Below are positions 8,556 to 44,928 of a stretch of 64,000 nucleotides of DNA, piece after piece (position 1 is the stretch's first letter; every line of letters starts with the position of its first letter). The stretch covers positions 248,001 through 312,000 of the forward strand of contig NZ_JAKMAJ010000004.1 of assembly GCF_022378355.1 (NCBI RefSeq), read 5' to 3'. The stretch is from Brenneria bubanii. GTDB lineage: Bacteria > Pseudomonadota > Gammaproteobacteria > Enterobacterales > Enterobacteriaceae. The position numbers and the translations under genes were made by a program. Under the pieces are notes generated by a model. That model was not told the origin of the DNA and did no database searches. It saw only the letters and a program-made list of their open reading frames with translations.

Positions 8556-8593
8556 CATTATTCCCCTGATTGTGCAAGTGATGGCGCAAAGCG

Positions 8594-21817: not shown

Positions 21818-22975
21818 TCAGGATTTCAGTAACAGCTTTTCGACCAACGATGTCCATGATTCGACACCCGGCTTAATCAACTCGTCATTAAAATCGTAAT
21901 AAGCATTATGCAGCGGTTTTGATGGCGCGGCTCCGTCGGAACCAAGCCAGAAATAGGCGCCGGGACAGGCTTCCAGCATGCAGGCAAAATCTTCGGACGC
22001 CATCGAAGGATTGATCTGCCAATGCACCTTGGATTCGCCTAATACGCTGCTGACGGCTTCGCGCACGTTTAGCGCTTCCTGCTCGTGGTTCATGGTTACC
22101 GGATAGCCGGGATAGTAAGTGATTTCGCCGTTGACGCCGAAAACGCGCGGCAGTTCATTGACAAATTCGTCAATCAGATTTTTAACCTTGATCCGCACAT
22201 CGGTCTGTAAACATCGCATGGTGCCGCGCAGCGTCACCTTCTCAGGTATCACGTTAATCGCTTCGCCGCCGGAAATTTGCGTAATGCTGACCACGGCGGA
22301 TGATTGCGGCGATAAGCGACGGGCGGCGATGGTTTGCAGCGATTGTATCAACTGCGAGGCGGCGATGATCGGATCGGCGCCGTTTTCCGGCATTGCCGCA
22401 TGACAGCTTTTGCCGGTCAGGGTGATTTCGAACGAGTCCAGCGAGGCCATCATGGCGCCGCTGCTTAAGCCCACATGGCCGACCGGTAAGCCGGGCCAGT
22501 TATGCAGGGCGTAGATGCCGTCCATGGGAAAACGTTCAAATAGACCGTCCGCGACCATTTTGTAGGCGCCGCCGAGGTTTTCTTCGGCGGGTTGAAACAC
22601 GAAATGCACCGTGCCGCTAAAGTTGCGGGTTTCACTCAAGTGCTTGGCGGCGGCCAGTAAAATCGCCGTGTGCCCATCATGACCGCAGGCGTGCATCACG
22701 CCTTTATTACGTGACTTGTGGCTGGCCTCGCCAAGCTCGGTGATCGGTAATGCATCCATATCGGCACGCAGCCCAATCGTCGGCCCCTGACCATTTTCCA
22801 GCGTCGCCACGATGCCGGTGCCGCCCAGTCCGGTATGAACCTGAAGGCCGAATGACGTGAGTAGTTCAGCCACGCGTTGAGACGTGGCGTATTCTTCATA
22901 CCCTAATTCGGGATTAGCATGGAATTCATGACGCCATGCGGTGGCTTCAGCGATTAAATGTTGTGAAATAGGCAT
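21818..22975 (-). CDS. M20 family amidohydrolase (hippurate hydrolase/N-acyl amino acid deacylase type)
   Basis: Metal-dependent amidohydrolase of 385 residues. The metal ligands are in GLRADMDALPI and MHACGHDGHTAILL, the general base in FVFQPAEENLGGAYKM, and the C-terminal His region in WLGSDGAAPSKPLHNAYYDFND. This class hydrolyses N-acyl amino acids such as hippurate, N-acetyl amino acids or auxin-amino acid conjugates. There is no signal peptide. Downstream on the same strand are the serine deaminase and the DUF3100 membrane protein, and a LysR gene lies beyond on the other strand. Given the nearby ipdC gene, an auxin-conjugate hydrolase is possible but unproven. Confidence 0.9.
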   Translation of the reverse strand: MPISQHLIAEATAWRHEFHANPELGYEEYATSQRVAELLTSFGLQVHTGLGGTGIVATLENGQGPTIGLRADMDALPITELGEASHKSRNKGVMHACGHDGHTAILLAAAKHLSETRNFSGTVHFVFQPAEENLGGAYKMVADGLFERFPMDGIYALHNWPGLPVGHVGLSSGAMMASLDSFEITLTGKSCHAAMPENGADPIIAASQLIQSLQTIAARRLSPQSSAVVSITQISGGEAINVIPEKVTLRGTMRCLQTDVRIKVKNLIDEFVNELPRVFGVNGEITYYPGYPVTMNHEQEALNVREAVSSVLGESKVHWQINPSMASEDFACMLEACPGAYFWLGSDGAAPSKPLHNAYYDFNDELIKPGVESWTSLVEKLLLKS

Positions 22976-22979
22976 CAGG

Positions 22980-23636
22980 TTATTCCTCTCCAGCGCCGTA
23001 ATTAAAACCAGACAGCCTGTGCTCTGCGCTTTTAAGCCAGAGACGCGTCACTTCACTGTCGGCACGTAAAACGTCAATATCCGATGAACATCGATACCGG
23101 CGGTCATGGGCGATGCGGATGACATCGGCCTGATGGCGAAGCGGCGCGGTAACGACCAAAGGGGCGATGATGTCTTCATCGGCTGCGTGAATGTCGCCAT
23201 TTCCTGCGGGCAGGGTTGGCGCGATGTCGTTTCGCCAGACATCGGGGGCGAAAACGCGATCACCCTTTGCAGACGCCTCATTCGCTGGCGCGGATTTTCG
23301 CCGGGCGAGAATGGGCTGATTGGGTTTGGCGGTGTCGATCGGCCTGACCTCGGTGGTTTTATCTTCCGGATTGGCAACATGAATTTTGGCCGAAGCCGCC
23401 GCTAAACCGGAAATGAATTTTTTATCTATCGTTTTCTCAACCCGCCGATGCGAGTCAGACGCGCCGCGCCGATGCACAGAGCCAAAGCACGTCAATCCAG
23501 TCTCTGGACGCCCGGCCTCCGTCAGTACGGCCCGGCAATCTGCATAAAGAACGTGGCTGTTCGTGGCGTCATGTATCGATGTCGCGCCTTTCCTGCTGAA
23601 GGAGTCGGCATAACCAACAGGGTTTGATGAGAACAT
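22980..23636 (-). CDS. Doubtful open frame of unknown function
   Basis: A 218-codon frame between the amidohydrolase gene and the LysR promoter, ending 4 bases before the amidohydrolase start. I recognise no domain in it. Its composition is Ala/Asp/Arg-rich without hydrophobic core segments, and overlapping frames of about 100 codons exist on both strands here. It may be a decayed gene, a real orphan, or non-coding leader sequence. No good ribosome-binding site was seen at its first ATG. Confidence 0.22.
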   Translation of the reverse strand: MFSSNPVGYADSFSRKGATSIHDATNSHVLYADCRAVLTEAGRPETGLTCFGSVHRRGASDSHRRVEKTIDKKFISGLAAASAKIHVANPEDKTTEVRPIDTAKPNQPILARRKSAPANEASAKGDRVFAPDVWRNDIAPTLPAGNGDIHAADEDIIAPLVVTAPLRHQADVIRIAHDRRYRCSSDIDVLRADSEVTRLWLKSAEHRLSGFNYGAGEE

Positions 23637-23699
23637 GACGGCTGCTTGATTGAGAATTTTAATGTTGAGCGAGTATAGACATTGGTGGAAAATCTAATC

Positions 23700-23745
23700 A
23701 ATAATCAAAATTTCAAATTTTGTTGCCATCATCGCAACACTCATT
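23700..23745. promoter_or_regulatory. Dyads in the LysR autoregulatory region
   Basis: Two dyads lie just before the LysR start. The first is a perfect palindrome at 23706-23722 (CAAAATTT-C-AAATTTTG). The second has TGTTGC and GCAACA arms at 23721-23739 with a seven-base spacer. The second has the interrupted-dyad form of LysR-type binding sites and shares its GTTGC/GCAAC core with the repeat upstream of the DUF3100 gene. Confidence 0.55.
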
Positions 23746-23756
23746 GAAGGTGAGAA

Positions 23757-24665
23757 ATGAGCATCATTCAGGATCATCGCATCCGGTATTTCTATGAGGC
23801 AGTCAAACGCGGCAGCGTCAGAGCGGCGGCAGATTTTCTCAATGTGGCGCCTTCAGCCGTCAGTCGGCATATCAGCCAGCTTGAAAGCGAGCTGTCGACG
23901 GCGCTGGTGGAGCGTCATCGGCGCGGCGTGAGGCCGACGGAAGCCGGTGAAGAGGTTCTCGCCTATTATCGCTCACATATGGCTGAGCAAGATCTGTTGA
24001 TGGATACGCTGCAATCGCTGAAGGGTTTGCAGAGCGGTACGGTCTGTATCGCGATTGGCGAGGGATATATCGACGACGTTTCTTCCGTTTTGTGCCAATT
24101 TTCGGCGAAATACCCTTCGATAAAGATCAAGGTCTCGGTGTGCGGCAGCAATGAATTGCTGCGTCAGATTAGCGAAGATGAAGCCCATATCGGCGTGGTA
24201 TTTCATCCGGGGCGAGGACCTAAAATACGTACGCATTGCCACGCGGTTCACCCGGTATGCGCTGTGGTGAACAGAGAGCACCCGCTGTTTGCTATGCAGG
24301 AGCCGATTGATTTGAATCAGCTTAATCAATACCGACTGGCGCTGCCTGATGTATCGCACGGCGTCCGCCAGATTATTGCGGAGGCGGAAGAGGATTCCGG
24401 CATCACGCTGACGCCTACGCTGGTGTGTAATAATCTCTCCACGCTGAAACCCTATGCGCTGCATGGCGGCGTTACGCTTCTGCCGGTCTTCATGGCGCAG
24501 GAAGAGATCGATCAGAACAGACTGCGCGCCATTCCGCTGCATAACCCGGTCTTCTCTTCCACCAAAACACACGTTGTTACGCGTTTGGGGCGGCAACTCA
24601 GCGTGGGCGCAGGCCAATTATTACAACTGATGACTCAGGAAATGCGATCGCTGAAACCGCTGTGA
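23757..24665 (+). CDS. LysR family transcriptional regulator
   Basis: LysR regulator of 302 residues. The N-terminal helix-turn-helix is IRYFYEAVKRGSVRAAADFLNVAPSAVSRHISQLE (here given only as the region of residues 10-44). The effector domain starts near residue 90 (GTVCIAIGEGYIDDV). The ATG follows GAAGGTGAGAA. It is divergent from the amidohydrolase/serine deaminase/DUF3100 group and likely controls it. It converges on the uroporphyrinogen decarboxylase-like gene, which looks like a separate unit. Confidence 0.9.
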   Translation: MSIIQDHRIRYFYEAVKRGSVRAAADFLNVAPSAVSRHISQLESELSTALVERHRRGVRPTEAGEEVLAYYRSHMAEQDLLMDTLQSLKGLQSGTVCIAIGEGYIDDVSSVLCQFSAKYPSIKIKVSVCGSNELLRQISEDEAHIGVVFHPGRGPKIRTHCHAVHPVCAVVNREHPLFAMQEPIDLNQLNQYRLALPDVSHGVRQIIAEAEEDSGITLTPTLVCNNLSTLKPYALHGGVTLLPVFMAQEEIDQNRLRAIPLHNPVFSSTKTHVVTRLGRQLSVGAGQLLQLMTQEMRSLKPL

Positions 24666-24727
24666 CGCGCGTGCGTTTTAGCGCGCCGCGCCAGCGAATC
24701 AGGGAAAATAGCCGGCGCCGACGGCGT

Positions 24728-25729
24728 TTATATGCTATTGGCCACCTGTGCGGCCAACTTGATGTTATTAAAATCAGTATCTTTTGGCATGCTGCAATCG
24801 GCGCCTAACAACAACCCCGTCTTGCCATTACGGGCAATAATATCTCGCGTTTGTTTTTCGATTTCACCGGCGGCGCCTTGATATAGAACGCCTTGAGAGG
24901 TGTTATCAAATCCCCCCAGAATGGCTTTGCCGGGAAATAATCGCCGCCCGGCCTGCAGTGAAACCTTTTCTACGCAGGTCGCCCAATTGACGGCCTTGAC
25001 CGGATAGTGGGAAAAGTGCTGTAAGTTATTGATTCGGCCTTCAAAACCACAAATATGCAGTACGTTGTAATCGCTTAGCTGATTGGCTGAGTTGAGTACC
25101 CGCAATTGGCTGGGTTCAATATACCTGCGATAGTTTTCTTCGCTAAAGGTCGGGCTTTGTACGCTTTGCACACACAAATAGATGCCGTCAATATGCGCCT
25201 CATTGATGAGCCTTTCTACTAATCGGGTAATATCATCGGCTATTTTATTCAGGGCCAGTGAAAACACGTAGGGATCTTCTTCAACAAGGCGTGGAAATTT
25301 GTTTTTGTCGTTATCAACCATGTCGAATTTTAATCTGAAATAATATGCGGGGGCGAAAATGTTATATATGGCGGCTATTTCACCACCATAAGAAGAAACG
25401 ATTTCTTTAACCGCATCGACCTGTTTTACTATCCATTCATCATCATCACCTACGGACTCTATTTTTTTGAAGTCCTCAGCGCTATTGATTTCCGTATTAA
25501 GCACAGAAGGATGAAGAAGAAACGCGTCACTCATTATTTTAGTAAAGTCAGGACGGTTTTTTTTATAAAATTGCTGTTGCGAAATAATGTTTTTTTTGAT
25601 TGTTTCATCATTTTTATAACCATAAATTTGTTCATCGCTATTTAAAAAATGATGCCAAATGCTGGCTAAAACCTTTTCATTTTTATTATCCAATGAATCG
25701 AAAAAAATCTGTCGTTTATTTGCCGTCAT
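24728..25729 (-). CDS. Uroporphyrinogen decarboxylase-fold protein, MtaA/methyltransferase-like
   Basis: A 333-residue TIM-barrel protein of the URO-D superfamily. It has the zinc-ligand arrangement of corrinoid or thiol methyltransferases of this superfamily: His225 and Cys227 in VLHICGFEG and Cys312 in LLGADCSMP. A true haem-pathway HemE would not have this HxC...C set. The gene is AT-rich and uses AT-ending codons, unlike its left-hand neighbours. It is divergent from the ABC transporter and ATC-hydrolase-family genes, separated by a dyad at 25853-25890. A thiol- or sulfur-directed methyl transfer is a reasonable guess; no corrinoid protein gene is seen in the window. Confidence 0.78.
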   Translation of the reverse strand: MTANKRQIFFDSLDNKNEKVLASIWHHFLNSDEQIYGYKNDETIKKNIISQQQFYKKNRPDFTKIMSDAFLLHPSVLNTEINSAEDFKKIESVGDDDEWIVKQVDAVKEIVSSYGGEIAAIYNIFAPAYYFRLKFDMVDNDKNKFPRLVEEDPYVFSLALNKIADDITRLVERLINEAHIDGIYLCVQSVQSPTFSEENYRRYIEPSQLRVLNSANQLSDYNVLHICGFEGRINNLQHFSHYPVKAVNWATCVEKVSLQAGRRLFPGKAILGGFDNTSQGVLYQGAAGEIEKQTRDIIARNGKTGLLLGADCSMPKDTDFNNIKLAAQVANSI

Positions 25730-26099
25730 TGTGGGGTGCCCATTGAAAAAAGTAAGTTGAATATTTCTACATGGTACTCACTATTCTTTCCTGATATCAA
25801 TAGGTTAATGAGATTTTTATATTATTTTGTCAGCTATGTATATTCTCTAATATTATAATAATAACGAGGGTAACTATGTTATTATTATAACAATGATTTA
25901 TATCATTTTAATGACCAGGCTGGAACATCAAAGAAACGCTTTGTTCACATTGGAACAATTCAAGTCGCAGAAAGGCGACGACGCAAGTATGTGGCTAGAT
26001 CGAGTAACAAAGCCAGACATAGGCAACCTGAGGTATAACGGGGATAAAAAATATTGTTGCCCGCTAATGACGACGACATATGTAACATAGGAAATATTA
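25730..26099. promoter_or_regulatory. AT-rich divergent control region with a perfect dyad
   Basis: This 370-base interval between the URO-D-like gene and the ABC ATPase gene contains a perfect inverted repeat, with 13-base arms at 25853-25865 (TTATAATAATAAC) and 25878-25890 (GTTATTATTATAA) and a 12-base spacer. A 65-codon open frame at 25893-26090 has no recognisable content and is probably chance. No other gene was found. Confidence 0.5.
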
Positions 26100-26840
26100 A
26101 TGGTCAGATTAGAAAATATTCATAAACGTTTTGATGATGAAGAAGTGTTGAAGGGCGCAACGATAGAGATCAAAAAAGGCCAGGTAGTTTGCCTTATCGG
26201 GCCGAGTGGTTCAGGGAAAACTACATTATTAAGATGCATTAATTTTTTGGAAAAAGCGGATAAAGGCCGTATCACTATTGATTCCGTCTCCGTGGATTGC
26301 GAAAAAGCCAGTAAAAAAGACATCGACAATATTCGTGCGAAAACCGCGATGGTCTTCCAGTCATATAACCTGTTCAATAACAAAACCGCATTGGAAAATG
26401 TTATGGAAGGGCTGGTTTACGCCAAGGGCATGGCTAAACGCGAAGCGAAAGAGATTGCTGAAAATTTACTGCACAAGGTGGGATTGGCGCATAAGCAAGA
26501 TACCTATCCCAGTAAACTTTCCGGCGGGCAAAAACAGCGCGTCGGCATTGCCAGAGCTCTGGCGATGAATCCCGAGGTTCTGCTTCTGGATGAACCGACA
26601 TCGGCGTTAGACCCTGAGATTGTGGGTGAAATATTAAAGTTGATTAAGGAAATCGCTCAGGAAGGGCAAACGATGATTATCGTCACCCACGAAATGAGCT
26701 TTGCTAATGAAGTGGCTTCGAACGTCATTTTTATGGAAAAAGGTTCAATCGTCGAGGAAAACGCGCCGCGTGAAATATTCAGTAATCCGAAAGAGGCGCG
26801 CACGAAAGAGTTTCTGGAACGCATTAATTTCACGATATAA
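26100..26840 (+). CDS. Polar amino acid ABC transporter ATP-binding protein
   Basis: ATPase of 246 residues of the GlnQ/HisP group. Walker A is GPSGSGKTT, the Q-loop is in MVFQSYNLFNNKTALEN, the signature is LSGGQKQRVGIARALAM, Walker B is VLLLDEPTSALDPE and the switch His is in IVTHEMSF. A TAGGA ribosome-binding site precedes the ATG. It is the first gene of an AT-rich transporter operon with two permeases and a lipoprotein receptor. The set would import an amino acid or amino-acid-like compound. Confidence 0.92.
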   Translation: MVRLENIHKRFDDEEVLKGATIEIKKGQVVCLIGPSGSGKTTLLRCINFLEKADKGRITIDSVSVDCEKASKKDIDNIRAKTAMVFQSYNLFNNKTALENVMEGLVYAKGMAKREAKEIAENLLHKVGLAHKQDTYPSKLSGGQKQRVGIARALAMNPEVLLLDEPTSALDPEIVGEILKLIKEIAQEGQTMIIVTHEMSFANEVASNVIFMEKGSIVEENAPREIFSNPKEARTKEFLERINFTI

Positions 26841-26874
26841 ACCCGTTCTGAACAGGTAAAACGAGATTTTGATA

Positions 26875-27570
26875 ATGGCAAGTAGATTTATTGATGTGTC
26901 TGAAATTATTGAAATATTCCCTAAGCTATTAGAGAATTTATCGGTAACCTTGTATATCTCGATAGCGTCTCTGGTGTTGGGGTTGCTGCTTGGTTTGTTG
27001 TTGACCGTTATGCAGGAAAGCCAGCGCGGCGTCATCAGACGCAGCGCATTGATTTACATTGATGTCATGCGCAGTACGCCGTTGTTGCTGCTGATTTTCC
27101 TGGTCTTTTTCGGCTCAAAGGTTTTCTTGTCTCAGCTTGGCGTTAGCCAGAGGTTATTCAGCGATAGCTTTTTAGCCATTGTGGCCATTACGCTGGGTAT
27201 GAGCGCCTATTTTTCCGAGATGATGCGCTCGGCCTACCGCGCCGTCGATAAAGGGCAGCTCGAGGCGATAAACAGTCTGGCCATTCCTGTCTTCGGCGGT
27301 TTTTTGCGCATTATTCTGCCTCAGGCTACCGTTATCGCCATCCCCAATCTGGGAAACTTGATGATAAATATTGTGAAACTGACCTCGTTAGTCAGCCTGA
27401 TCGGTATTGTCGATGTATTTGGCCGCGCTAAAAAGATATCCAACAGCAACTATGGGGTTAACCAGCTTGAGGCCTTTATTTCAGTAATCATTATTTACTG
27501 GATAATTAATGTATTAATTGATGTCGCCATGAAATTCTTAGAGAAGAAGTATCGGTATCTATTGGATTAG
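26875..27570 (+). CDS. Polar amino acid ABC transporter permease
   Basis: Inner-membrane permease of 231 residues of the HisM/GlnP type. The N-terminal helix NLSVTLYISIASLVLGLLLGLLL-like region is followed by IDVMRSTPLLLLIFLVFFGSK and the EAA loop (EAINSLAIPVFGGFLRIILPQA). The ATG at 26875 is preferred over a TTG at 26869; it lies 34 bases after the ATPase stop. It pairs with the next permease. Confidence 0.9.
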   Translation: MASRFIDVSEIIEIFPKLLENLSVTLYISIASLVLGLLLGLLLTVMQESQRGVIRRSALIYIDVMRSTPLLLLIFLVFFGSKVFLSQLGVSQRLFSDSFLAIVAITLGMSAYFSEMMRSAYRAVDKGQLEAINSLAIPVFGGFLRIILPQATVIAIPNLGNLMINIVKLTSLVSLIGIVDVFGRAKKISNSNYGVNQLEAFISVIIIYWIINVLIDVAMKFLEKKYRYLLD

Positions 27571-27582
27571 AAGGTATATATT

Positions 27583-28275
27583 GTGTTCAGCTTAGATTTC
27601 TTTATTGTTAACTTTCCAGTGGTCTTGCAAGCTGTTCCGTTAACGTTAGGCATTGCTTTGTCATCCGTTATATTATCGACCTTATTGGGATTCATTTTTG
27701 CCGTTATAAAAATAAAACGCATACCCATCCTTTATCCTATATCGGCTGTGTTTATGTCGTTTAGCCGTTCCGTACCTAACTTAGCCGTGCTTTACTTTTT
27801 ATATTTTGCATTTCCTTATTTCGTAGGTGCATTAAGCGGCGATTATTCCATTTCACTGGGTGCCAACAAGCTAAATCCTAATCTGGTGGCGATTATTACG
27901 TTTACTATTACCTTCAGTGTCTATTTCGCCGAGGTGTTTCGTTCAGCCTATAATTCCGTTGACAAAGGGCAGTTTGAAGCGGCATGGTCGATTGGTCTGC
28001 CGACCCGGAGTTATTTACGCCGGATTATATTTCCTCAGGCAACGACGCAGGCTTTACCTAATTATACCAGTGTGGTGATCGACTTAATAAAAGATACGTC
28101 TTTAGTGTATACCATCTCGGTAATGGATATTATGGGAAAGGCGACGTTTGTCGCCGCGAGAGGTTTTCACTATATTGATGCTTATCTGATTGCATTTGTC
28201 ATCTATTTGATTATTTGCTTCGCGATTTCAAAATCATTACGGTTTTTAGAAGTTAAACTGAGCTGTTATAAATAA
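27583..28275 (+). CDS. Polar amino acid ABC transporter permease
   Basis: Second permease of the importer, 230 residues, starting with GTG 12 bases after the previous stop. AAGGT precedes the start. Typical segments are FMSFSRSVPNLAVLYFLYFAFP and the EAA loop FEAAWSIGLPTRSYLRRIIFPQA. Two different permease genes imply a heterodimeric channel. Confidence 0.9.
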   Translation: MFSLDFFIVNFPVVLQAVPLTLGIALSSVILSTLLGFIFAVIKIKRIPILYPISAVFMSFSRSVPNLAVLYFLYFAFPYFVGALSGDYSISLGANKLNPNLVAIITFTITFSVYFAEVFRSAYNSVDKGQFEAAWSIGLPTRSYLRRIIFPQATTQALPNYTSVVIDLIKDTSLVYTISVMDIMGKATFVAARGFHYIDAYLIAFVIYLIICFAISKSLRFLEVKLSCYK

Positions 28276-28338
28276 TATCACGACCGATAGCGGTGGTAAT
28301 ATAGGGTATATGATTAATCACGGGAGTTAATTAATAAT

Positions 28339-29220
28339 ATGAGTAAAAAATATTTATATGCAATCGTCGCGGCGTTGGCCTTAGGCATCGCAGGATGCGA
28401 TAACGCGTCGGATTCCAGCAATGCAGCGGCCAGCAGCGGGAATACGTCGGCAAAGGATCAGGTGAAAGAAGTCGAAGTGGTCATCAATGAAAACTCTTTT
28501 CCGTTTTCGTTTGTTGACGATGCCGGTAAGTTCTCGGGTTACGATGGCGAACTGCTGGGAATTATTGATGAAAAGTTACCGCAATACGCATTTCATTTTA
28601 ACGCGGTATCCCGTGATGCGATGTTGGTTGGTTTATCCACCGGAACCTACAATTTAGCGGCGAATCACTTTTATATTAATAAGGAACGCGCTGAAAAATA
28701 CGACTATTCACATGAGCCGACGGGCCTAAGTGATTTGAGATTGATCGTAAGAAAAGATGATAACGAAATAAACTCCCTGGCCGACTTCGCCAAATCCGGG
28801 AAAAAACTGGTTCCTATTCATGTCAGCGACGCTCGTTATCAGGTGATTGCGGATTACAATGCGGCTAACCCGAATAATCAGATTGTGTTAAAAGCAACCG
28901 GCGAACAAACGGCGGCCGATATTTTCAAATCAGTGGCGTCCGGTGAGTATGATGCCGCCATTTATCCCATCGGCGCATTTTTAGCCGTCACTAAAAAAAT
29001 CGATTTGAATTTGAAGGTATCCAACTCGGTGGGCATTTTCCCCAATGTGTTTTTGTATAGCAAAACGCCAGAATCGGCTGAGCTTATGAAGGCGATTGAT
29101 AACGTCTTAATCGATCTTAAAAACGATGGCACATTAGCCAAACTGTCCGTTAAATGGCTTGGCGAGGATGTTTATGCGTTGGATGGCGCAAAAAATACAA
29201 CAGTGCCAACCCAGTTTTAG
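28339..29220 (+). CDS. Amino acid ABC transporter substrate-binding lipoprotein
   Basis: Receptor of 293 residues in the SBP_bac_3 family. A lipoprotein signal peptide ends at LGIAGC with the lipidated Cys at residue 20. Asp follows at position +2, which in enterobacteria favours retention in the inner membrane. A Ser/Ala/Asn-rich linker (residues 21-42) precedes the binding domain (VVINENSFPFSFVDDAGKFSGYDGELL). Lipoprotein receptors are less usual for amino acid importers in enterobacteria than in Gram-positive bacteria, which fits horizontal origin for this AT-rich operon. Confidence 0.9.
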   Translation: MSKKYLYAIVAALALGIAGCDNASDSSNAAASSGNTSAKDQVKEVEVVINENSFPFSFVDDAGKFSGYDGELLGIIDEKLPQYAFHFNAVSRDAMLVGLSTGTYNLAANHFYINKERAEKYDYSHEPTGLSDLRLIVRKDDNEINSLADFAKSGKKLVPIHVSDARYQVIADYNAANPNNQIVLKATGEQTAADIFKSVASGEYDAAIYPIGAFLAVTKKIDLNLKVSNSVGIFPNVFLYSKTPESAELMKAIDNVLIDLKNDGTLAKLSVKWLGEDVYALDGAKNTTVPTQF

Positions 29221-29233
29221 CGCGATCTAGAAT

Positions 29234-29270
29234 AAGGATGCACGGTGATAAATGTTAAACCTGCATCCTT
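29234..29270 (+). terminator. Inverted repeat after the receptor gene
   Basis: Arms AAGGATGCA and TGCATCCTT enclose a 19-base loop, immediately downstream of the receptor stop and ahead of the ATC-hydrolase-family gene. There is no clear T-tract. It may be an attenuator or an mRNA-stabilising hairpin that lowers expression of the last gene. Confidence 0.4.
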
Positions 29271-29334
29271 AAATTGGATGGGGCGGCTTTAAATTAGTGA
29301 TGAGTTAAGCATAATGAATAAAGAGGTAGCGTTG

Positions 29335-29862
29335 ATGAGCAATAATTTACTGGATGACATAAAGAAAAATAATACGCCGTCAATAACTGATGAGGTAACG
29401 CTGGCTCTGAGAGCGGTGACGGAAAAAAGGGCGTCCACCATTGCGAATATGATTGATGAAGCGAAAAGTAAAGGGCTGAATGACAATTTCGCCCGCGCAG
29501 CTATTTATAATTATGGCGTCGCTAATGGTCATGATATGGCTAAATCGATGAAAAATCCTGACGATCTCATCGAATTTTCAAACACGTTCATCTCGGGTCT
29601 GGAACCTGATGTTTATGAGATGGAGCTAATCAAGGCGACGGAGGAGGAGTTTCAGGTTCACTTTCATTACTGTCCCTACGTCACCAAGTGGTTACAGCAA
29701 AACAGAACTACCGATGAACTGGCGAACTTATGTGATATCTGCATGGAAGGCGATGGCGCTTTGGCAACGGTATTTTCGGATCTGGAGTTTGAATTGGGCA
29801 GCACCATCGCCAAAGGCGGTCAGGTCTGTGATATTCATTATAAACGATCGCAAACTTCTTGA
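29335..29862 (+). CDS. ATC (L-2-amino-thiazoline-4-carboxylate) hydrolase family protein
   Basis: Protein of 175 residues recognised by its pattern as a member of the ATC hydrolase family. The region ARAAIYNYGVANGHDMAK is followed by EEFQVHFHYCPYVTKWLQ, LANLCDICMEGDGALA and FELGSTIAKGGQVCDIHYKR. Cysteines at about 113, 133, 136 and 165 match the Cys-rich pattern of the family. The founding enzyme opens the ring of aminothiazoline carboxylate in conversion to L-cysteine in Pseudomonas. AGAGG lies 8 bases before the ATG at 29335; an ATG at 29314 would add seven residues. It closes the AT-rich transporter operon. The real substrate is not shown by sequence. Confidence 0.72.
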   Translation: MSNNLLDDIKKNNTPSITDEVTLALRAVTEKRASTIANMIDEAKSKGLNDNFARAAIYNYGVANGHDMAKSMKNPDDLIEFSNTFISGLEPDVYEMELIKATEEEFQVHFHYCPYVTKWLQQNRTTDELANLCDICMEGDGALATVFSDLEFELGSTIAKGGQVCDIHYKRSQTS

Positions 29863-30092
29863 TATTGAAAAGGAATATTTGATCGTGGCGTAGGTATTCT
29901 CGAAAACATCCTATCGCTGGCGTTTTCCTTCAGACAAAACGGGCAATCTATGGCTGTGAGTCTTGGGAAATTCCGGCGATAAGATGAAAATGGCGTTTGA
30001 TACGTTTTAGTGCAATTGATATCGGTTACTTGCGGATCCGCTTATTATTGGTGCAGTAGGTGATTTCTCTCCCTTACCGGGCGGTATTTACC

Positions 30093-30305
30093 TCAATAAA
30101 CGTTTTCAGGAATAATTGTTTTTTTCATTGAAATAATAAAGTGGCCATCTTTTTTGAATATTTTCCCACCTCTATCCGCACACATCATGGCAAGTTTGAA
30201 AAAATCATCGCTTCCGATATCAAAAGCTAACTTTATCTTTTTGGCGATGCCAGCCTTAATAAGTTCTTCGGCCTGGTAATATGTGGATGCCTGAACTAAC
30301 GACAT
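30093..30305 (-). CDS. Small hypothetical protein
   Basis: A 70-residue frame with a good ribosome-binding site (GAGGGAG five bases before the ATG). It has a helix-rich N-terminus (ASTYYQAEELIKAGIAKKIKLAF) and a basic C-terminus. There is no signal peptide, membrane helix or known motif. It is AT-rich like the cassette to its left. It stands alone between the ATC-hydrolase-family gene and the serine hydrolase. It is plausibly real on codon pattern and ribosome-binding site; its function is unknown. Confidence 0.5.
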   Translation of the reverse strand: MSLVQASTYYQAEELIKAGIAKKIKLAFDIGSDDFFKLAMMCADRGGKIFKKDGHFIISMKKTIIPENVY

Positions 30306-30525
30306 AATGACTCCCTCAAAGAAGTGTTGGAAAAATCCATATATTTCAAATATGCGCCATTTTTATTTCATAAAGATGAAGATAAGTTTACATTTTAATG
30401 AATTAACACGGTTCGTTTATACAGTGTTTCTTTTGACATGCGTCTGACACAGAAACGCGCTATGGTTGACCCGTTATCTGCTTATCACCAGCGACTCGTC
30501 GTTCCTTGAATCAGCAGGAGGATGT

Positions 30526-31092
30526 ATGAGCTATGTCAATAATATCATCATAGTGCATGGGTTCTTATCGACGCCGAGACACCATTGGTTCCAATGGCTG
30601 GCTCAACAGTGGCAAGACGCCAATATTCGCGTTTTCATTCCTAGGATGCCGATGCCGCGTGCGCCGAAACCTGATAAATGGCTGGCTCAGTTGCGTAATA
30701 CCATCGCTATGCCCAATGAAAAAACCTGGTTTATCGGGCACAGTTTGGGATGTATTACCGTGTTGCGTTATTTGTCTTCTTTGCATGAAGAGCTGAAAGT
30801 CGGAGGCGTCATTCTAGTATCCGGATTTGCGGAGCAGGTCGATACGCATCCTGAGCTTAATGATTTTACCGCCACGCGCATTGACTTTAATTTATTGCGT
30901 AAAACGATAAAGCATCGCATCACCATCCTGTCGTCGAACGATAGCGTCGTCGCGCCGCACCATACGGTAAAACTGCGCGAGCAGCTGGATGCCGAACTCT
31001 ACAGCTTTACCGGATGCGGGCATTTTCTGGCGTGCGACGGCTTTGATCAATTCCCGGCGTTAAATAATATACTGCGCGACTATTTGAAATGA
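30526..31092 (+). CDS. RBBP9/YdeN-type serine hydrolase
   Basis: Small alpha/beta hydrolase of 188 residues in the RBBP9/YdeN family. It begins NIIIVHGFLSTPRHHWFQWL. The nucleophile elbow is GHSLG (Ser near residue 76), Asp lies in SSNDSVVAPHH and the His in GCGHFLA. The ATG at 30526 is chosen because AGGAGG lies six bases upstream; the open frame to 30466 has no conserved sequence. It appears to be a single-gene unit. Substrates of this family are not well known. Confidence 0.88.
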   Translation: MSYVNNIIIVHGFLSTPRHHWFQWLAQQWQDANIRVFIPRMPMPRAPKPDKWLAQLRNTIAMPNEKTWFIGHSLGCITVLRYLSSLHEELKVGGVILVSGFAEQVDTHPELNDFTATRIDFNLLRKTIKHRITILSSNDSVVAPHHTVKLREQLDAELYSFTGCGHFLACDGFDQFPALNNILRDYLK

Positions 31093-31094
31093 TT

Positions 31095-31205
31095 GCATAG
31101 CCCTTTGGCTATGTAATACCCACGATTTGCGGAGGAATAATCCCGATGAAGATATTGCGCTGGTCGGCGATGATGGGATACTCCATGCCTTGAAGGCATG
31201 GAGTC
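31095..31205. repeat. Two hairpins between the hydrolase and ClpP-like genes
   Basis: The first has arms CATAGCC (31096-31102) and GGCTATG (31107-31113) with a four-base loop. It lies just after the hydrolase stop and could terminate or stabilise its mRNA. The second has perfect 11-base arms, ACTCCATGCCT (31180-31190) and AGGCATGGAGT (31194-31204), with a TGA loop. Neither is followed by a T-tract. The second resembles the end hairpins of IS200/IS605-type elements, but no transposase is present. Confidence 0.45.
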
Positions 31206-31277
31206 AGAAGGTATGTCGCCGTTTTTCACCGCTTGCCTCATCAGGCGCGGCGTGAACCCGGCGTTTTGCGGCCGGCT

Positions 31278-31874
31278 TTAGGCGTCCAGCTCATCCCAGC
31301 GAGTGATCAGGTGACTGGTGATGCCGTAGTCGATGGCTTGTTGTGGCGACATCCAGTAGTTGCGGTCGGTATCTTCCACCACTTTTTCCAGCGGTTGCCC
31401 CGTCGCTTCGCTGATCAGTTTGTTGATGCGGGTACGGATACGCAATAGCTCATTGGCTTCGATCTGGATATCCGTGACGCGGCCCTGCACGCCGCCTAAT
31501 GGCTGATGAATCATGAAGCGCGTATTGGGCAGGGTATAGCGATCCTGCTTGTCTGCGGCCAGATAAATAGTAATCCCCGCACTGGCGACCCAGCCGGTGC
31601 CGATTGCCAGTACCCTGGGCTTAACAAATTTAATCATGTCGTGGATAGTATCGCCCGCTTCGACATGACCACCCTGACTATTAATAAATAGCTTAATCGG
31701 CTCATCGCTCATTTCCTGTAAAATAAGCAGTTGAGCAGCCACCTTTTCAGCCAACTTTTGGTTTATTTCACCAGAAATAATAACTGAACGTGATTTCATT
31801 AATTCATTCATCGCAGAGGACGCGCTGTTATCCTGCTTATCATCCTCTTGTTGTTTCTGCGGTTCTTTCGACAT
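31278..31874 (-). CDS. ClpP-like protease subunit with Asn in the triad
   Basis: A ClpP paralogue of 198 residues. The nucleophile Ser98 is in GWVASAGITIYL and His123 in RFMIHQPLGG. In place of the third triad residue, the Asp of E. coli ERDRFLS, it has Asn172 (TDRNYWMS). The Gly-rich INSQGGHVEAGDTIHDMI segment and the handle region are normal. The N-terminal 25 residues are charged and differ from the usual propeptide. The ATG at 31874 has GGAG upstream; the frame runs open to 31976 without conserved sequence. No ClpX/ClpA gene is adjacent, so it is a second, lone ClpP, possibly working in mixed rings. Confidence 0.87.
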   Translation of the reverse strand: MSKEPQKQQEDDKQDNSASSAMNELMKSRSVIISGEINQKLAEKVAAQLLILQEMSDEPIKLFINSQGGHVEAGDTIHDMIKFVKPRVLAIGTGWVASAGITIYLAADKQDRYTLPNTRFMIHQPLGGVQGRVTDIQIEANELLRIRTRINKLISEATGQPLEKVVEDTDRNYWMSPQQAIDYGITSHLITRWDELDA

Positions 31875-32126
31875 TACAAATACTCCATCGCTTGGTGTCT
31901 TTAATATCAGTGCGCGTTTAGCATGGCGGAATGCTAGCGTACGTCGATTACGCCATTTGGCAATGATATACGTCATGCTTTAGTCGCACGCGCGTAGGTT
32001 TTATTATTTTGTCCCGTAAATAACGCTATCGCAAATACCGAGCTTCAATTATTTGCCGATGATTATCTTTCCCTATTCGTGAAAGCGCGTGCATAGGGCC
32101 GCTTATCCGGCCCATGCCGCTGAGCA

Positions 32127-32582
32127 TTACATCTCTTTTGTGAACTTATCCCGCAGGCTTTCTCTTTGCTGCTCAAACCATCGCAAGATTGAACGGCACT
32201 CTTCTACCTGCTCAAACGTGAGCGGATTTTCACTGCCGGGATCCTGCTGGTGTATGGCAAACTGTTTTTGCTTAAGATTGAGCGATTCGCCTTTTTCCGC
32301 CACCAGATTTAAAAAATCGCGCAACGCCGCGCTAAAGAGAAAGTCCGCTTCGGCGAGCGCCTCTTCATATTCCATCATCATCGAATCGGTAACATCGGCA
32401 TCTTTGATAACCAGCTTTATAAAATTTCGCGTTTGTTTGTAGACATATAATCTTCTACTGTACAACCGTTCACGAACTTCACGATTTTTCTCAGTTTGGT
32501 CTCTGAATATTATCCAGAACAGGATGAACAGCGACACGGTGCTGATCAGAGTTTGTCCAATGAAAAGGACATTGGTGTTCAT
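32127..32582 (-). CDS. Hypothetical single-helix membrane protein
   Basis: A 151-residue protein with one N-terminal transmembrane helix (LISTVSLFILFWIIF, residues about 12-26) and a basic, helix-rich cytoplasmic domain with charged coiled-coil-like stretches (NREVRERLYSRRLYVYKQTRN; YEEALAEADFLFSAALRDFLNLVAEKGESL as separate segments). I recognise no family with confidence. It overlaps the DUF421 gene by 4 bases, so the two are co-translated and probably form a complex in the inner membrane. Confidence 0.72.
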   Translation of the reverse strand: MNTNVLFIGQTLISTVSLFILFWIIFRDQTEKNREVRERLYSRRLYVYKQTRNFIKLVIKDADVTDSMMMEYEEALAEADFLFSAALRDFLNLVAEKGESLNLKQKQFAIHQQDPGSENPLTFEQVEECRSILRWFEQQRESLRDKFTKEM

Positions 32583-33286
32583 TCAACTATCTCCTTTTTC
32601 TTTTTTATCAGGGAGGAAAGACTACGGAATTTGCGCGGACGGACGCTGCCATCTTTCAGAATACATTTTAAATTACCTTGCCAATATTCACCTAAAAAAA
32701 CATCGTCGGGATCTTTTATGCCGATTAATTCCATCTCATTCAAAAGATCGTGTTTAGTGATGCCAAGCTCTCTGAGCTCTGTATCCCTGACATTGCCGTT
32801 ATGAAAAACGATGATGGCAGGCTGCGAGTTTTTATCGCAGATTGCGGTAACTGAACCATCCGGTTCGATTTGCGCATAACTGATTTCATCAAAAGAGTAT
32901 ATCCCCTGACTATTCAACCTGGATGCTATATGAAATATATCGATCTTGTTTTTCTTTTTTAAAATATTTTCCATAATAAACACACCATCCTTAATGATCG
33001 GAATAGGACGGCCGACGGCGATGTTTCTAAAAATATGATATTTTTTGCAAAAGGTATTCAGAAAAAAAAGCACCATAATGCCCAGTAACAATACCAGTAC
33101 ATACTCATAGAGCGGAATCGCCTCTGAGTAAATAATGCCGCCAATTATGCCGCCCAGCACGAAGTTGCCAATAAGATCGATAGCATTCATCTGCGACATT
33201 TGCGTTCTGCCCGACAGATTGAAATAAGTGATGATTAGCGCGAAGCCGATGATAAACTTGATCAAAACCAGAAAATAAAAATACAT
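32579..33286 (-). CDS. DUF421 (YetF-like) membrane protein
   Basis: A 235-residue protein with three N-terminal helices (residues about 5-80, including LIGNFVLGGIIGGIIYSEAIPL) and a C-terminal soluble DUF421 domain with the typical LKKKNKIDIFHIASRLNSQGI and SYAQIEPDGSVTAI segments. In Bacillus, YetF/YdfR-type proteins are spore or membrane proteins of poorly known role. It is AT-rich relative to its right-hand neighbours. The downstream gene overlaps by 4 bases. Confidence 0.85.
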   Translation of the reverse strand: MYFYFLVLIKFIIGFALIITYFNLSGRTQMSQMNAIDLIGNFVLGGIIGGIIYSEAIPLYEYVLVLLLGIMVLFFLNTFCKKYHIFRNIAVGRPIPIIKDGVFIMENILKKKNKIDIFHIASRLNSQGIYSFDEISYAQIEPDGSVTAICDKNSQPAIIVFHNGNVRDTELRELGITKHDLLNEMELIGIKDPDDVFLGEYWQGNLKCILKDGSVRPRKFRSLSSLIKKKKEIVE

Positions 33287-41876: not shown

Positions 41877-42614
41877 TTACTTTGCGGGTAAAAATGTGAT
41901 AACGTCCTGCGCTGAAAGCGGGCCGGAGAAGACGAACCCCTGAATGCCTATTTTTTCACAACAGGGTATCATTTTAAGATCTTCTACATTTTCGATACCT
42001 TCGCAAATAACTTCAGCGCCACTATCAAGAAAGAAAAAAAGAATTTTTAAAAACCTGTCATGTTTTACTCTGGATTTTCCAATGCCGCTGACAATACCGC
42101 GATCTATCTTAATCGTGTCGAAATTATGATTTTTTAAATCTTTTTCTTGCAATATACCCAGGCCAAAATCATCCAGTGCTATTTTAAAACCGCGATTTTT
42201 TATATGATTAAGAAAATCAAAGTGGGTTATTAAATCAACTGGTGAGATGTTTTCATTAATTTCAATTTCAATTTTTCGGCTGCACAATGAATGCTCCAGA
42301 CATTTATTTGTCAGATAGTCTATTATTTCATAGTCACCTAACAAAAAATGAGAAAGATTAAGGCTTATTTTGTGGTTATTAGCTTTCGCCAGAAAATCAA
42401 TAACTGAATCCATCACAAAGTATGTCGCTGCTTTTATATTTCCAGTTTTTTCCAATTCACTTATTACATCAAGAACAGGAATAGGTTTTCCCTGGGAATC
42501 AAAGAATCTCGATAAGGCTTCCAGTTTGTAAATCATCCCAGAGTGTCTATTTATTACAGGCTGATAAACAATTCGGTGGATACAGTATTTCCCTAATGGT
42601 TTTAAATCCCGCAT
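41877..42614 (-). CDS. EAL domain cyclic-di-GMP phosphodiesterase
   Basis: A stand-alone EAL domain of 245 residues with no sensor or GGDEF domain. The motif is KLEALSRF (Glu32). The other metal and catalytic residues are in place: Asn86 (SLNLSH), Glu in EIEINEN, Asp148-Asp149 (ALDDFGLG), Lys169 (TIKIDRG), Glu205 (CEGIEN) and Gln225 (GIQGFVFSGP). It is therefore predicted active in hydrolysing c-di-GMP. It is AT-rich and divergent from the PilZ gene 584 bases away, so the two may form a signalling pair. Confidence 0.88.
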   Translation of the reverse strand: MRDLKPLGKYCIHRIVYQPVINRHSGMIYKLEALSRFFDSQGKPIPVLDVISELEKTGNIKAATYFVMDSVIDFLAKANNHKISLNLSHFLLGDYEIIDYLTNKCLEHSLCSRKIEIEINENISPVDLITHFDFLNHIKNRGFKIALDDFGLGILQEKDLKNHNFDTIKIDRGIVSGIGKSRVKHDRFLKILFFFLDSGAEVICEGIENVEDLKMIPCCEKIGIQGFVFSGPLSAQDVITFLPAK

Positions 42615-43197
42615 AGATGCTTGCTTTTATGATTATAAATTAGGCTAACACTAATACAAAGCCAAGTCGGCGTTAAATCGTTTTTATCGATCAATAATAG
42701 TTTTGCGATAGTAATTACCTATCATTTAAGTATTTATTGATCGCTGAGTCCTATTATAATATATTCCAATATAATCTTATCCCTAGGAGGAATATTGAGG
42801 TAAACGTGGTGTGCCGCGGGAAGTAAAGTTCTTTAGTCATTAATGCATGATGTTGTAATTAGCAGAAAGATTTATAACAAAATTTATATATTTTTCATGT
42901 AATTAAAGTAATTTAATGTGATCTTGAACACGGAATTATTCTTTTTTTTTGATTTCTGAAAGTCATTTTAGGCGCTGTAACAGCCTTCATCATTGAAAGC
43001 GGTGTTTATGAAGACGTGTTCATGTTGAGCAGACTGGCGCCTTACATAGATTCTTAAGTATTGCTTATATTACTCACAACGATGTTTTTACCATTCTGAA
43101 ATTTTAGATTGGTAAGGTTAACATATGATTGTTTTATTGATGATGAACGCATGGATGATCTTTCAAAAGACAGCTATGGCCTGGATAGGTATTCCAA
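42615..43197. other. Long AT-rich divergent intergenic region
   Basis: No coding sequence, tRNA or strong hairpin was found in these 583 bases between the EAL and PilZ genes. It must hold both promoters. An AGGAGG sequence at about 42786 is not followed by a frame of useful length. Confidence 0.4.
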
Positions 43198-44928
43198 ATG
43201 ATTACACAGAATGACAACCCTTCAGCAAAAGTGATTTCTTCGCTGCTTCAGTATAAACATACATTATCTGTATATAGTAAAGAAATTCCTTTCTCACTGA
43301 CCGCGAAGGTTATGAATTTAGAGCTGGTTACGGGACGTATGATATTTGAAATGGAGTATCCAACGGCGGATATTCAGGAATACCTGTCAGTTAATGGCAT
43401 CAGCTTTGACCTGGAAGCCATGAACGGCGCGCACCCCACAGAACGGGATACATACAATCTCAGTAATGTCCCGTGCAATCTCGTTAAAATAAACGGAATG
43501 CAGTACCAACTGGAGTGCCAGCTTCCCAACTCTGTCTTTGTACAAGAGAGTCGAGGGGCGATCCGCATCCCATTTATATTCGGCATGCGGGGGCGTGTCA
43601 GCATCGAGGTATATCCCCATGAGTTAAAAGTAACCGGCAGTCTGCATAACTTATCTGCCGGCGGTTGCATGATCGATGTTAATTTGTCGGATGGTGTCGT
43701 GCTGAATATAAACCAAAATGTGCCAAGGGTGACTCTGGCATTTCCTAATGGAGAAACTTTTTGGGCGGAGGGCAATATTCGTCATATCCGCCCGTTTGGC
43801 AACCATGGATATGCCGCCATTGGTATTCAGTTTATTAATTTATCATCGTCACAAACTGAAGCGCTATATCATTATGTCAATGAATCAGAAAGGGAAGCCA
43901 TTTATCGAACCGGTGCAAGCGATAAGGTTGAGCAGCCGTCTCCGCTATTTATTCCCGGAGTCGGGGAGAAAATGATTCTGCAACATGAAATTCAGGAACG
44001 TGAAAAGTTTGCTCGCCGACTGCCCGCTGAACAGAGCGTGATGAACATCTCCCATCAACTCCAGATTGGCCTGATGTATATAAAAAACCATAATTTGTTT
44101 CCTGTTAAGCTATTTTATAGCTGTGTTGACACTTTGCTCAATTTGGTTAAAGAAGATCGAAAAAATTTTTTGTACGCGCTTAATTTTTTACGCGATGAGC
44201 CTGATTGGGTCAGGCATGCCATAAAGGTTGCCGCCCAGCTTGCTGATATGCTGTTGTTGCATGATCCCTATAATGATCAGATACGCGAAGCGGTATTAGG
44301 CGCATTGCTGCATACCATGGGGAAAGCGCTGCTAACCGGCGTCAATCTGCCTTCACTTAAAGTCTATATGACGCCACCTCAAAAGAATATTCTCAAGGGC
44401 CATGTCGCCGCCCTCAGTAAAAAATTAAAGCAGTTGGGTTGGGAGCCGAGTCCGCTATGCAGAGAGGTAATTGAAAATGCGAATGAACGCCTTGACGGCA
44501 CCGGCTATCCGGCCGGCAAGCATCGTTTTGAACTTTCGTATTTGATGCGACTAGTCTCGGTAATCAAAATCGTTAATAAATTAATATATGCCCGTAACGG
44601 TGTTCCGCCTCGTACGCCACTGGAGGCCTACCGTTATATCAATGAAGCAGGCGATACCTATGATAAGGCCGTCTTGATCGAATATATACGGACCTATGGT
44701 CCCAATCCAATCGGTACGTTAGTTAAATATAGCGGCGGATTTCTCGCCTGGGTTGTGGATGTAAACGATCGTGGGGAACCGATAAAAGTGAATATTATTA
44801 AAAACCTTCGATTCCCGGAAAGTAATATAAACAGCCTTCTTTCCAAAAGCGATTTATTACAAATCGGCAAGCTTGAAGGTGTCGTAAATCCAACGGACTT
44901 TGGGGTGAAAATCGGCGTTATTGAGTAA
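43198..44928 (+). CDS. PilZ protein with degenerate HD-GYP domain
   Basis: A 576-residue protein. The N-terminal part (residues 1-110) resembles the YcgR-type flagellar brake domain. The PilZ domain follows, with c-di-GMP ligands R119-xxx-R123 (SRGAIR) and N151-x-S153-xx-G156 (NLSAGG). The C-terminal half (residues about 280-500) has the HD-GYP fold, but the HD pair is His372-Thr373 (LLHTMGKAL). The HERxDGxGYP motif reads NERLDGTGYP, and the later metal Asp is Asn460 (KIVNKL). It is thus likely a catalytically dead c-di-GMP receptor. Confidence 0.82.
   Translation: MITQNDNPSAKVISSLLQYKHTLSVYSKEIPFSLTAKVMNLELVTGRMIFEMEYPTADIQEYLSVNGISFDLEAMNGAHPTERDTYNLSNVPCNLVKINGMQYQLECQLPNSVFVQESRGAIRIPFIFGMRGRVSIEVYPHELKVTGSLHNLSAGGCMIDVNLSDGVVLNINQNVPRVTLAFPNGETFWAEGNIRHIRPFGNHGYAAIGIQFINLSSSQTEALYHYVNESEREAIYRTGASDKVEQPSPLFIPGVGEKMILQHEIQEREKFARRLPAEQSVMNISHQLQIGLMYIKNHNLFPVKLFYSCVDTLLNLVKEDRKNFLYALNFLRDEPDWVRHAIKVAAQLADMLLLHDPYNDQIREAVLGALLHTMGKALLTGVNLPSLKVYMTPPQKNILKGHVAALSKKLKQLGWEPSPLCREVIENANERLDGTGYPAGKHRFELSYLMRLVSVIKIVNKLIYARNGVPPRTPLEAYRYINEAGDTYDKAVLIEYIRTYGPNPIGTLVKYSGGFLAWVVDVNDRGEPIKVNIIKNLRFPESNINSLLSKSDLLQIGKLEGVVNPTDFGVKIGVIE

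What the first reader, a model, noticed from the sequence alone, without database searches (positions are those of the whole stretch)
24728..29862. AT-rich cassette: URO-D/MtaA-like protein, amino acid importer with lipoprotein receptor, and ATC-hydrolase-family protein
Five units of one functional look lie together: an importer of the polar amino acid type, a protein related to the aminothiazoline-carboxylate ring-opening enzyme, and a divergent methyltransferase-like TIM barrel with an HxC...C zinc site suited to thiol chemistry. Codon use and base composition are far more AT-rich than the genes on the left. The receptor is a lipoprotein with Asp at +2, unusual for enterobacterial amino acid importers. 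I infer a horizontally acquired pathway for a cyclic or S-substituted cysteine-like compound, feeding cysteine or sulfur metabolism. I know of no described enterobacterial system with this set.
Basis: partly seen in the sequence, partly recalled or inferred. Interest (0 to 1): 0.8.

Follow-up and report, generated by a model that had tools for sequence, protein, structure and literature searches.

The report
Sulfur amino acid salvage cassette
Six neighbouring genes in this bacterium look like an importer plus two enzymes for an unidentified sulfur-containing amino acid; relatives of the set in some lactic acid bacteria carry a methionine-sensing RNA switch, which points to an undescribed route for salvaging methionine or cysteine.

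Summary
Six AT-rich genes (24728-29862) encode a URO-D/MtaA-like protein with HxC...C, a polar amino acid ABC importer with a lipoprotein receptor, and a PF14196 (ATC_hydrolase) protein above its cut-off. The set is not private to this strain: importer plus PF14196 recurs in 12 named genomes (5 lactobacilli, 7 Enterobacterales); 4 of the lactobacilli add URO-D. In sampled Lactobacillales, URO-D lies beside the same importer family in 42 of the 46 genomes that have it. The new evidence is regulatory: 16 of 25 scanned lactic-acid-bacterial loci have a predicted T-box leader before the operon, and all 18 leaders read the methionine codon AUG. One form without T-box matches S. mutans SMU.932/933 (tcyDEFGH, published as HomR-activated cysteine transport). 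I place the set in methionine/cysteine salvage. The window's importer and PF14196 group with other cassettes but its URO-D with a different clade, so URO-D and PF14196 were probably combined twice. A new variant of a known kind (S-amino-acid importer operon). No structure model was obtained.

The parts
24728..25729 (-). URO-D/MtaA-like protein (333 aa), HxC...C (H225, C227, C312); divergent from the importer
   Evidence: tree places it with the URO-D1 of a ~3-Mb Lactobacillales group
25730..26099 (.). 370-base divergent intergenic region; no Rfam match at gathering, best MetJ-box score no better than shuffles, no MetR box
26100..26840 (+). importer ATPase, TcyN-like (324 bits, cut-off 406)
26875..27570 (+). 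importer permease 1
27583..28275 (+). importer permease 2 (GTG start)
28339..29220 (+). lipoprotein receptor SBP_bac_3, lipobox IAGC with Asp +2; nearest solved chains Lmo2349 (4gvo), 4eq9, YtmK (2o1m), 4c0r
29335..29862 (+). PF14196 ATC_hydrolase-family protein (175 aa)
23757..24665 (+). LysR regulator tail to tail with URO-D; candidate regulator only
   Evidence: a LysR also lies beside URO-D in L091

Best explanation
It is a horizontally acquired import-and-salvage module for a sulfur amino acid derivative that feeds methionine and/or cysteine. The lipoprotein receptor, two permeases and ATPase import a carboxylate-bearing S-compound. The PF14196 protein then hydrolyses it to free cysteine, homocysteine or a simple N-acyl form. 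The URO-D-like protein binds zinc and a thiolate at H225/C227/C312 and moves an S-bound alkyl (most likely methyl) group to or from it without a corrinoid partner. Shown by computation: gene set, families, conservation, methionine-specifier T-box leaders before relatives' operons. Inferred: acquisition, zinc, compound class, both enzyme reactions, and that regulation in this enterobacterium answers to the same need.
For: The reading rule gave the expected codon for 9 of 11 control leaders in two of the same genomes (LeuS twice, ValS twice, TrpS, SerS, IlvB, MetE, MetA). tcyDEFGH is HomR-activated along with metBC (passage of PMC5131005); the C-terminal decamers printed for SMU.932 and SMU.933 (PMC10782952) agree at 8 of 10 residues each with the URO-D and receptor of L091. 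URO-D beside the full importer in 42 of 46 genomes. Receptor nearest to YtmK, Lmo2349 and two chains that I recall as GshT. Distant PF14196 genes: MetQ-like importer set beside 3 of 26, cysteine-desulfidase-like gene beside 6 of 26, cysteine synthase-like gene beside 1 of 26. The Arg that I recall as carboxylate-binding is kept in 41 of 41 receptor rows, some of them duplicates.
Against: The window has no T-box and no MetJ or MetR box, so methionine control is by kinship only. 9 of 25 lactic-acid-bacterial loci lack a detected T-box. URO-D and PF14196 are each dispensable: URO-D is absent from L011 and from the 7 enterobacterial genomes; in 395 Lactobacillales genomes URO-D occurs in 46 and PF14196 in 1. 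The window genome already has a MetE-sized PF01717 protein, a MetH-sized protein and a 324-aa MmuM-type protein. 16 of 26 distant PF14196 loci had none of the reference sulfur or M20 neighbours beyond weak ATPase matches; the references were picked from these same loci and no background rate was computed. Other neighbours were a helicase, regulators and sugar genes.
Confidence: 0.62

Rival explanations
1. Thiazoline/thiazolidine route: the importer takes up 2-aminothiazoline-4-carboxylate or thiazolidine-4-carboxylate, PF14196 opens the thiazoline ring to an N-carbamoyl or N-formyl cysteine, and a deacylase frees cysteine. In the enterobacterial variant the ProC-like enzyme would first oxidise the thiazolidine.
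For: PF14196 above cut-off; ProC-like gene in 7 of 7 enterobacterial cassettes, the Kosakonia one 183 bits to TIGR00112 with cut-off 197; M20 beside distant PF14196 in L007 and L039; the column where GlnH has its amine-binding Asp (recalled) is Pro, Ile or Val in 41 of 41 receptor rows, which would suit a ring nitrogen. P5C reductase acting on thiazolidine carboxylates is recalled.
Against: No deacylase inside the window cassette (an M20 gene lies outside, 21818-22975, which had it among its queries, labels none in the cassette loci). By eye in the alignment YtmK also lacks that Asp. Methionine rather than cysteine specifiers in the lactobacilli. The function of PF14196 here rests on the family name.
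Confidence: 0.28
2. Methyl-donor route: the importer takes up a methylated sulfur amino acid (for example S-methylmethionine or S-methylcysteine) and the URO-D-like zinc enzyme transfers the methyl to homocysteine, giving methionine without folate or corrinoid; PF14196 acts on a side product.
For: HxC...C in 25 of 27 aligned rows; TIGR01463 is the best profile; AUG T-boxes; related URO-D-superfamily proteins are proposed to act on methyl-S/Se compounds in corrinoid clusters (preprint PMC10418091: abstract, part 1 of 2 of Results, Discussion).
Against: No corrinoid gene in the cassette. MmuM-type proteins are not complementary to URO-D: 15 of 48 lactic-acid-bacterial URO-D genomes have one of 310-355 aa against 2 of 31 without URO-D, and the window genome has one. 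URO-D is absent from the enterobacterial cassettes and L011.
Confidence: 0.25
3. Plain high-affinity methionine, cystine or glutathione importer; the URO-D-like and PF14196 proteins have accessory roles (redox, sensing) rather than processing the cargo.
For: tcyDEFGH is described as cysteine transport; ATPase and receptor score best against TcyN and cystine-receptor models, both below cut-off; nearest solved receptors.
Against: An importer for a common amino acid needs neither enzyme, yet URO-D is beside it in 42 of 46 genomes; receptors lack the usual amine contact.
Confidence: 0.22
4. Acquired but decaying or unused island.
For: AT-rich, patchy, absent from the three same-genus genomes searched; cut-down copies on Enterobacter and Klebsiella plasmids.
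Against: All six frames open; HxC...C and the PF14196 invariant residues kept.
Confidence: 0.05

Closest known systems
S. mutans tcyDEFGH (SMU.932-936; that the two names are the same operon is recalled), HomR-regulated cysteine transport operon
   Same: URO-D-family gene (inferred from the C-terminal decamer of SMU.932) beside receptor, permeases and ATPase of the same family; sulfur amino acid regulon
   Different: no PF14196 in the matching locus L091; no T-box; order UROD-SBP-perm-perm-ATPase
B. subtilis TcyJKLMN (YtmJKLMN) importer
   Same: receptor YtmK among the nearest solved chains
   Different: no URO-D or PF14196 in that operon (recalled)
MtaA/MtbA/CmuA and Mlp URO-D-superfamily methyltransferases
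   Same: weak profile match; HxC...C ligands
   Different: 46 bits against a cut-off of 235; no corrinoid protein or activase beside it
Pseudomonas L-ATC hydrolase pathway (AtcB/AtcC, recalled)
   Same: PF14196 family name
   Different: different gene set; enzyme activity not shown here

Membership tests
PF14196 ATC_hydrolase | profile score above gathering | tested here: met
   62.1 bits against 28.1
PF14196 ATC_hydrolase | hydrolysis of L-ATC | not testable with these tools
   no assay; no solved relative at E 1
MtaA/CmuA methyltransferases (TIGR01463) | profile score above curated cut-off | tested here: not met
   46.4 against 235.4
MtaA/CmuA methyltransferases (TIGR01463) | HxC...C zinc ligands | tested here: met
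   residues H225, C227, C312 present; zinc itself not tested
MtaA/CmuA methyltransferases (TIGR01463) | corrinoid protein partner in the same cluster | tested here: not met
   none among the 10 proteins profiled at 21818-31976; the rest of the genome was not searched
URO-D superfamily PF01208 | profile score above gathering | tested here: inconclusive
   window protein no hit at 0.01; 8 of 8 relatives tested pass
tcyDEFGH-type operon | URO-D-family gene beside receptor, two permeases, ATPase | tested here: met
   all five present; URO-D is divergent in the window, co-directional in relatives
tcyDEFGH-type operon | sulfur amino acid regulation | tested here: inconclusive
   predicted in lactobacilli and a ~3-Mb group by T-box; no known site in the window
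Cystine importer equivalogs (TcyN, TcyJ-type receptor) | equivalog cut-offs | tested here: not met
   ATPase 324 of 406, receptor 66 of 312

The most novel reading that the evidence does not exclude
The URO-D-like protein is a corrinoid-independent zinc S-alkyl(methyl)transferase, present in many Lactobacillales (S. mutans SMU.932/TcyD probably among them), that takes its alkyl donor from the co-encoded importer under methionine control; PF14196 is its hydrolytic partner. The window then carries an independently assembled copy of an undescribed methionine-salvage pathway shared between Bacillota and Enterobacterales.
Probability: 0.3. Interest if true: 0.8.

Novelty: new variant of a known kind. 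Interest (0 to 1): 0.55.

Why it matters
It ties two families of unknown or doubtful function (URO-D-like proteins without a corrinoid partner, and PF14196) to methionine supply through an independent signal, the T-box specifier, and makes both directly testable. It would give a role to the unassigned gene SMU.932 beside an amino acid importer of S. mutans, and would add a sulfur source used by lactic acid bacteria and enterobacteria.

Tried and rejected
Tried without result: near match in E. coli genomes (none); PF14196 profile against solved structures (none at E 1); URO-D profile against solved structures (none at 1e-5); MetJ and MetR sites (boxes recalled, best MetJ scores reached by most shuffles, no MetR box in the 11 regions); a clean empty site in same-genus genomes (of two fetched stretches only the serine hydrolase at 30525-31093 and a 300-base piece at 30103-30402 matched the window by DNA).

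Rejected: URO-D as a simple replacement for MmuM (not complementary). The second URO-D-profile hit of this genome as HemE: I guessed so and labelled it HemE_own in script 123, but its sequence is of the URO-D2 kind.

T-box control: 11 of 30 fetched control loci were used, those whose downstream protein I recognised from its N-terminus (names recalled, not profiled). The script gave the expected codon for 9 of 11, two of these with a second, spurious reading, and missed HisZ and PheS (by eye CAC and TTC). Of 17 operon T-boxes given to the same script ATG was among the readings in 9 and the only reading in 3; 4 (L095, L096, L099, L100) gave AAT only, because an extra A shifts the pattern; 2 (L093:1148, L101) gave nothing; the 2 of L011 gave other codons.

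Literature searched; no listing described the set with PF14196. Sperandio 2010 is not held and is known to me only through a passage in PMC5131005 and recall. Papers: PMC10418091 abstract, part 1 of 2 of Results, Discussion and passages; PMC5131005, PMC10782952, PMC10900908, PMC6004538, PMC2494555, PMC10233336, PMC12815764, PMC9387928, PMC6952196 and PMC11921374 passages only; the rest search listings.
Full report
What is there. The window lies in G000 contig C4. Between a LysR gene (23757-24665) and a small serine hydrolase (30466-31092) are six open genes: a URO-D/MtaA-like protein on the minus strand, then, after 370 bases, ATPase, permease, permease, lipoprotein receptor and a 175-residue PF14196 protein on the plus strand.

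Is it conserved. A scan of named genomes with the PF14196 alignment gave 38 loci. Twelve form the cassette group at 43% identity or more: five lactobacilli (Loigolactobacillus iwatensis, L. backii, L. bifermentans, Ligilactobacillus ubinensis, Lentilactobacillus kefiri) and seven Enterobacterales (Klebsiella spallanzanii, K. oxytoca, K. michiganensis, K. grimontii, Kosakonia, Raoultella, Enterobacter). In 12 of 12 the order is ATPase-permease-permease-receptor-PF14196. Four of the five lactobacilli have URO-D at the front; L011 and the seven Enterobacterales have none (URO-D in 4 of 12 genomes). The Enterobacterales carry instead a ProC-like gene (7 of 7) and a VOC gene (5 of 7) by blastp; domain names were checked on the Kosakonia copies only. 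An L. kefiri plasmid holds the full set. Within the window's own family a PF14196 relative occurs in 3 of 295 genomes and URO-D in 1 of 295, the window's genome counted in both; the three same-genus genomes searched lack both.

URO-D and the importer. In Lactobacillales 46 of 395 sampled genomes have the URO-D family at E 1e-30 and 1 of 395 has PF14196 at E 1e-10. I fetched all 46 loci: in 42 the URO-D lies on one strand with receptor, two permeases and ATPase of the window's importer family, gaps under 1.5 kb. Of the four others, G580's URO-D lies within 3 kb of its contig start, so the importer side is probably cut off; G320, G617 and G639 are the three weakest hits and lie beside genes that I read as PTS. 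Many genomes have two URO-D copies; in a ~3-Mb group (L093, L095, L096, L099-L101) a Gfo/Idh/MocA-type gene lies between them.

Regulation. Of 25 lactic-acid-bacterial loci scanned with Rfam, 11 have a T-box at gathering directly upstream of the operon and 5 more below it (L010, L011, L012, L088; L089; 77-93 bits against 93). Nine have none: L048 (a URO-D without importer), L049, L087, L082, L091, L092, L094, L097 at the lax threshold and L083 at gathering. L004 and L014 are the same species. All 18 T-box elements read AUG at the specifier position (alignments; contexts of L004 and L099), with one inserted base to allow for in the first L011 element. A pattern script was much less sure on the operon leaders than on the controls (counts in Tried and rejected). 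The rule gave the expected codon for leaders of LeuS (CUC, two), ValS (GUA, two), TrpS (UGG), SerS (UCC), IlvB (AUC), MetE and MetA (AUG) in two of the same genomes. AUG-specifier T-boxes before methionine genes and ABC receptor genes are described in L. paracasei (PMC6004538, passages). The ABC-PF14196 operon without URO-D in L011 has two such leaders in tandem, so the methionine link does not hang on URO-D alone. The window and the two enterobacterial cassettes scanned have no Rfam match at gathering.

Link to a known operon. The forms in L082, L091 and L092 have no T-box. In S. mutans, tcyDEFGH is HomR-activated together with metBC and listed as cysteine transport (PMC5131005, passage), and SMU.932-936 are reported as an amino acid transport cluster (four of the five); that tcyDEFGH equals SMU.932-936 is recalled. 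PMC10782952 prints the last ten residues of SMU.932 and SMU.933: the first eight of those of SMU.932 recur in a row near the end of the L091 URO-D, and eight of ten of SMU.933 agree with the L091 receptor tail. L091 also has a LysR gene beside URO-D. I infer that SMU.932 is of this URO-D family; the S. mutans gene itself was not seen.

Distant PF14196. Of 26 distant loci with a PF14196 ORF, an ATPase, permease and MetQ/NlpA-like lipoprotein (199 bits, cut-off 229, tested in L041; MetN and MetI are my labels) lie upstream in L039, L041 and L044; a PF03313-type gene lies beside L027 (short match), L030, L034, L037, L044 and L045, the L037 one nearest to solved L-cysteine desulfidase (E 1e-25); a cysteine synthase-like gene (below cut-off) beside L023; M20 genes beside L007 and L039. 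The other 16 had weak ATPase matches or none of these references within 3.5 kb; L035 and L038 lie beside sugar genes and L025 beside a helicase. The references were chosen from these loci and no background rate was computed, so this is suggestive only.

History. Quick maximum-likelihood trees with SH-aLRT support: PF14196 of the window, six lactobacillar rows and ten enterobacterial rows form one set (99); receptor and ATPase of the window join the nine enterobacterial rows (99, 97); the window URO-D joins the URO-D1 of the ~3-Mb group (99), not the URO-D of the lactobacillar PF14196 operons. URO-D also stands divergently in the window and co-directionally elsewhere. The simplest reading is that URO-D and PF14196 were combined twice. 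The window URO-D branch is long and the trees carry no bootstrap, so this is likely rather than shown.

Mechanism. HxC...C is complete in 25 of 27 aligned URO-D rows; the other two are the second paralog of the ~3-Mb group, with His at position 227. A zinc-bound thiolate is the known use of this triad in MtaA-type enzymes (recalled). No corrinoid gene was found among the 10 proteins profiled around the cassette, so any transfer would be direct. Receptor rows keep one Arg in 41 of 41 and have Pro 23, Ile 10 or Val 8 where GlnH has its amine-binding Asp (residue roles recalled; rows include duplicates), which allows but does not prove a masked or cyclic amine. Among receptors only the window's and those of the ~3-Mb group show a lipobox. 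The window genome also has MetE-, MetH- and MmuM-type proteins, so the module would add a source, not a missing step. I commit to a methionine/cysteine salvage module (0.62) and leave the compound open between the thiazoline and methyl-donor routes.

Verdict. The finding is real and worth following. It is a new variant of a known kind: an S-amino-acid importer operon with two unassigned enzymes. Structure models were not obtained.

Noticed in passing
L166 (G000:C15:32000-49000), 7582-8667: This genome has a second URO-D-type gene, 40% identical to the URO-D2 of the ~3-Mb group (position 227 is His), beside a TIGR04028 peptide-type ABC receptor, a likely permease, an ATPase and a CMD/alkylhydroperoxidase protein.
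   Followed up: partly
L005 8462-10286, L006 8980-10247, L009 8914-10067: Enterobacter and Klebsiella plasmids carry cut-down copies (part of the receptor and PF14196 with VOC, or PF14196 and VOC alone) beside insertion sequences and next to a GntR, ABC receptor, SIS-domain and PfkB set.
   Followed up: no
L093 1148-12741: One genome has two importers and three URO-D copies in a row, with two AUG T-boxes, one before each block.
   Followed up: no
window 41877-44928: A second AT-rich pocket (GC 0.35-0.45): an EAL-domain protein and a 576-aa protein.
   Followed up: no
window 31278-33286: A ClpP-family protein and a YetF/DUF421 membrane protein in the same AT-rich stretch.
   Followed up: no
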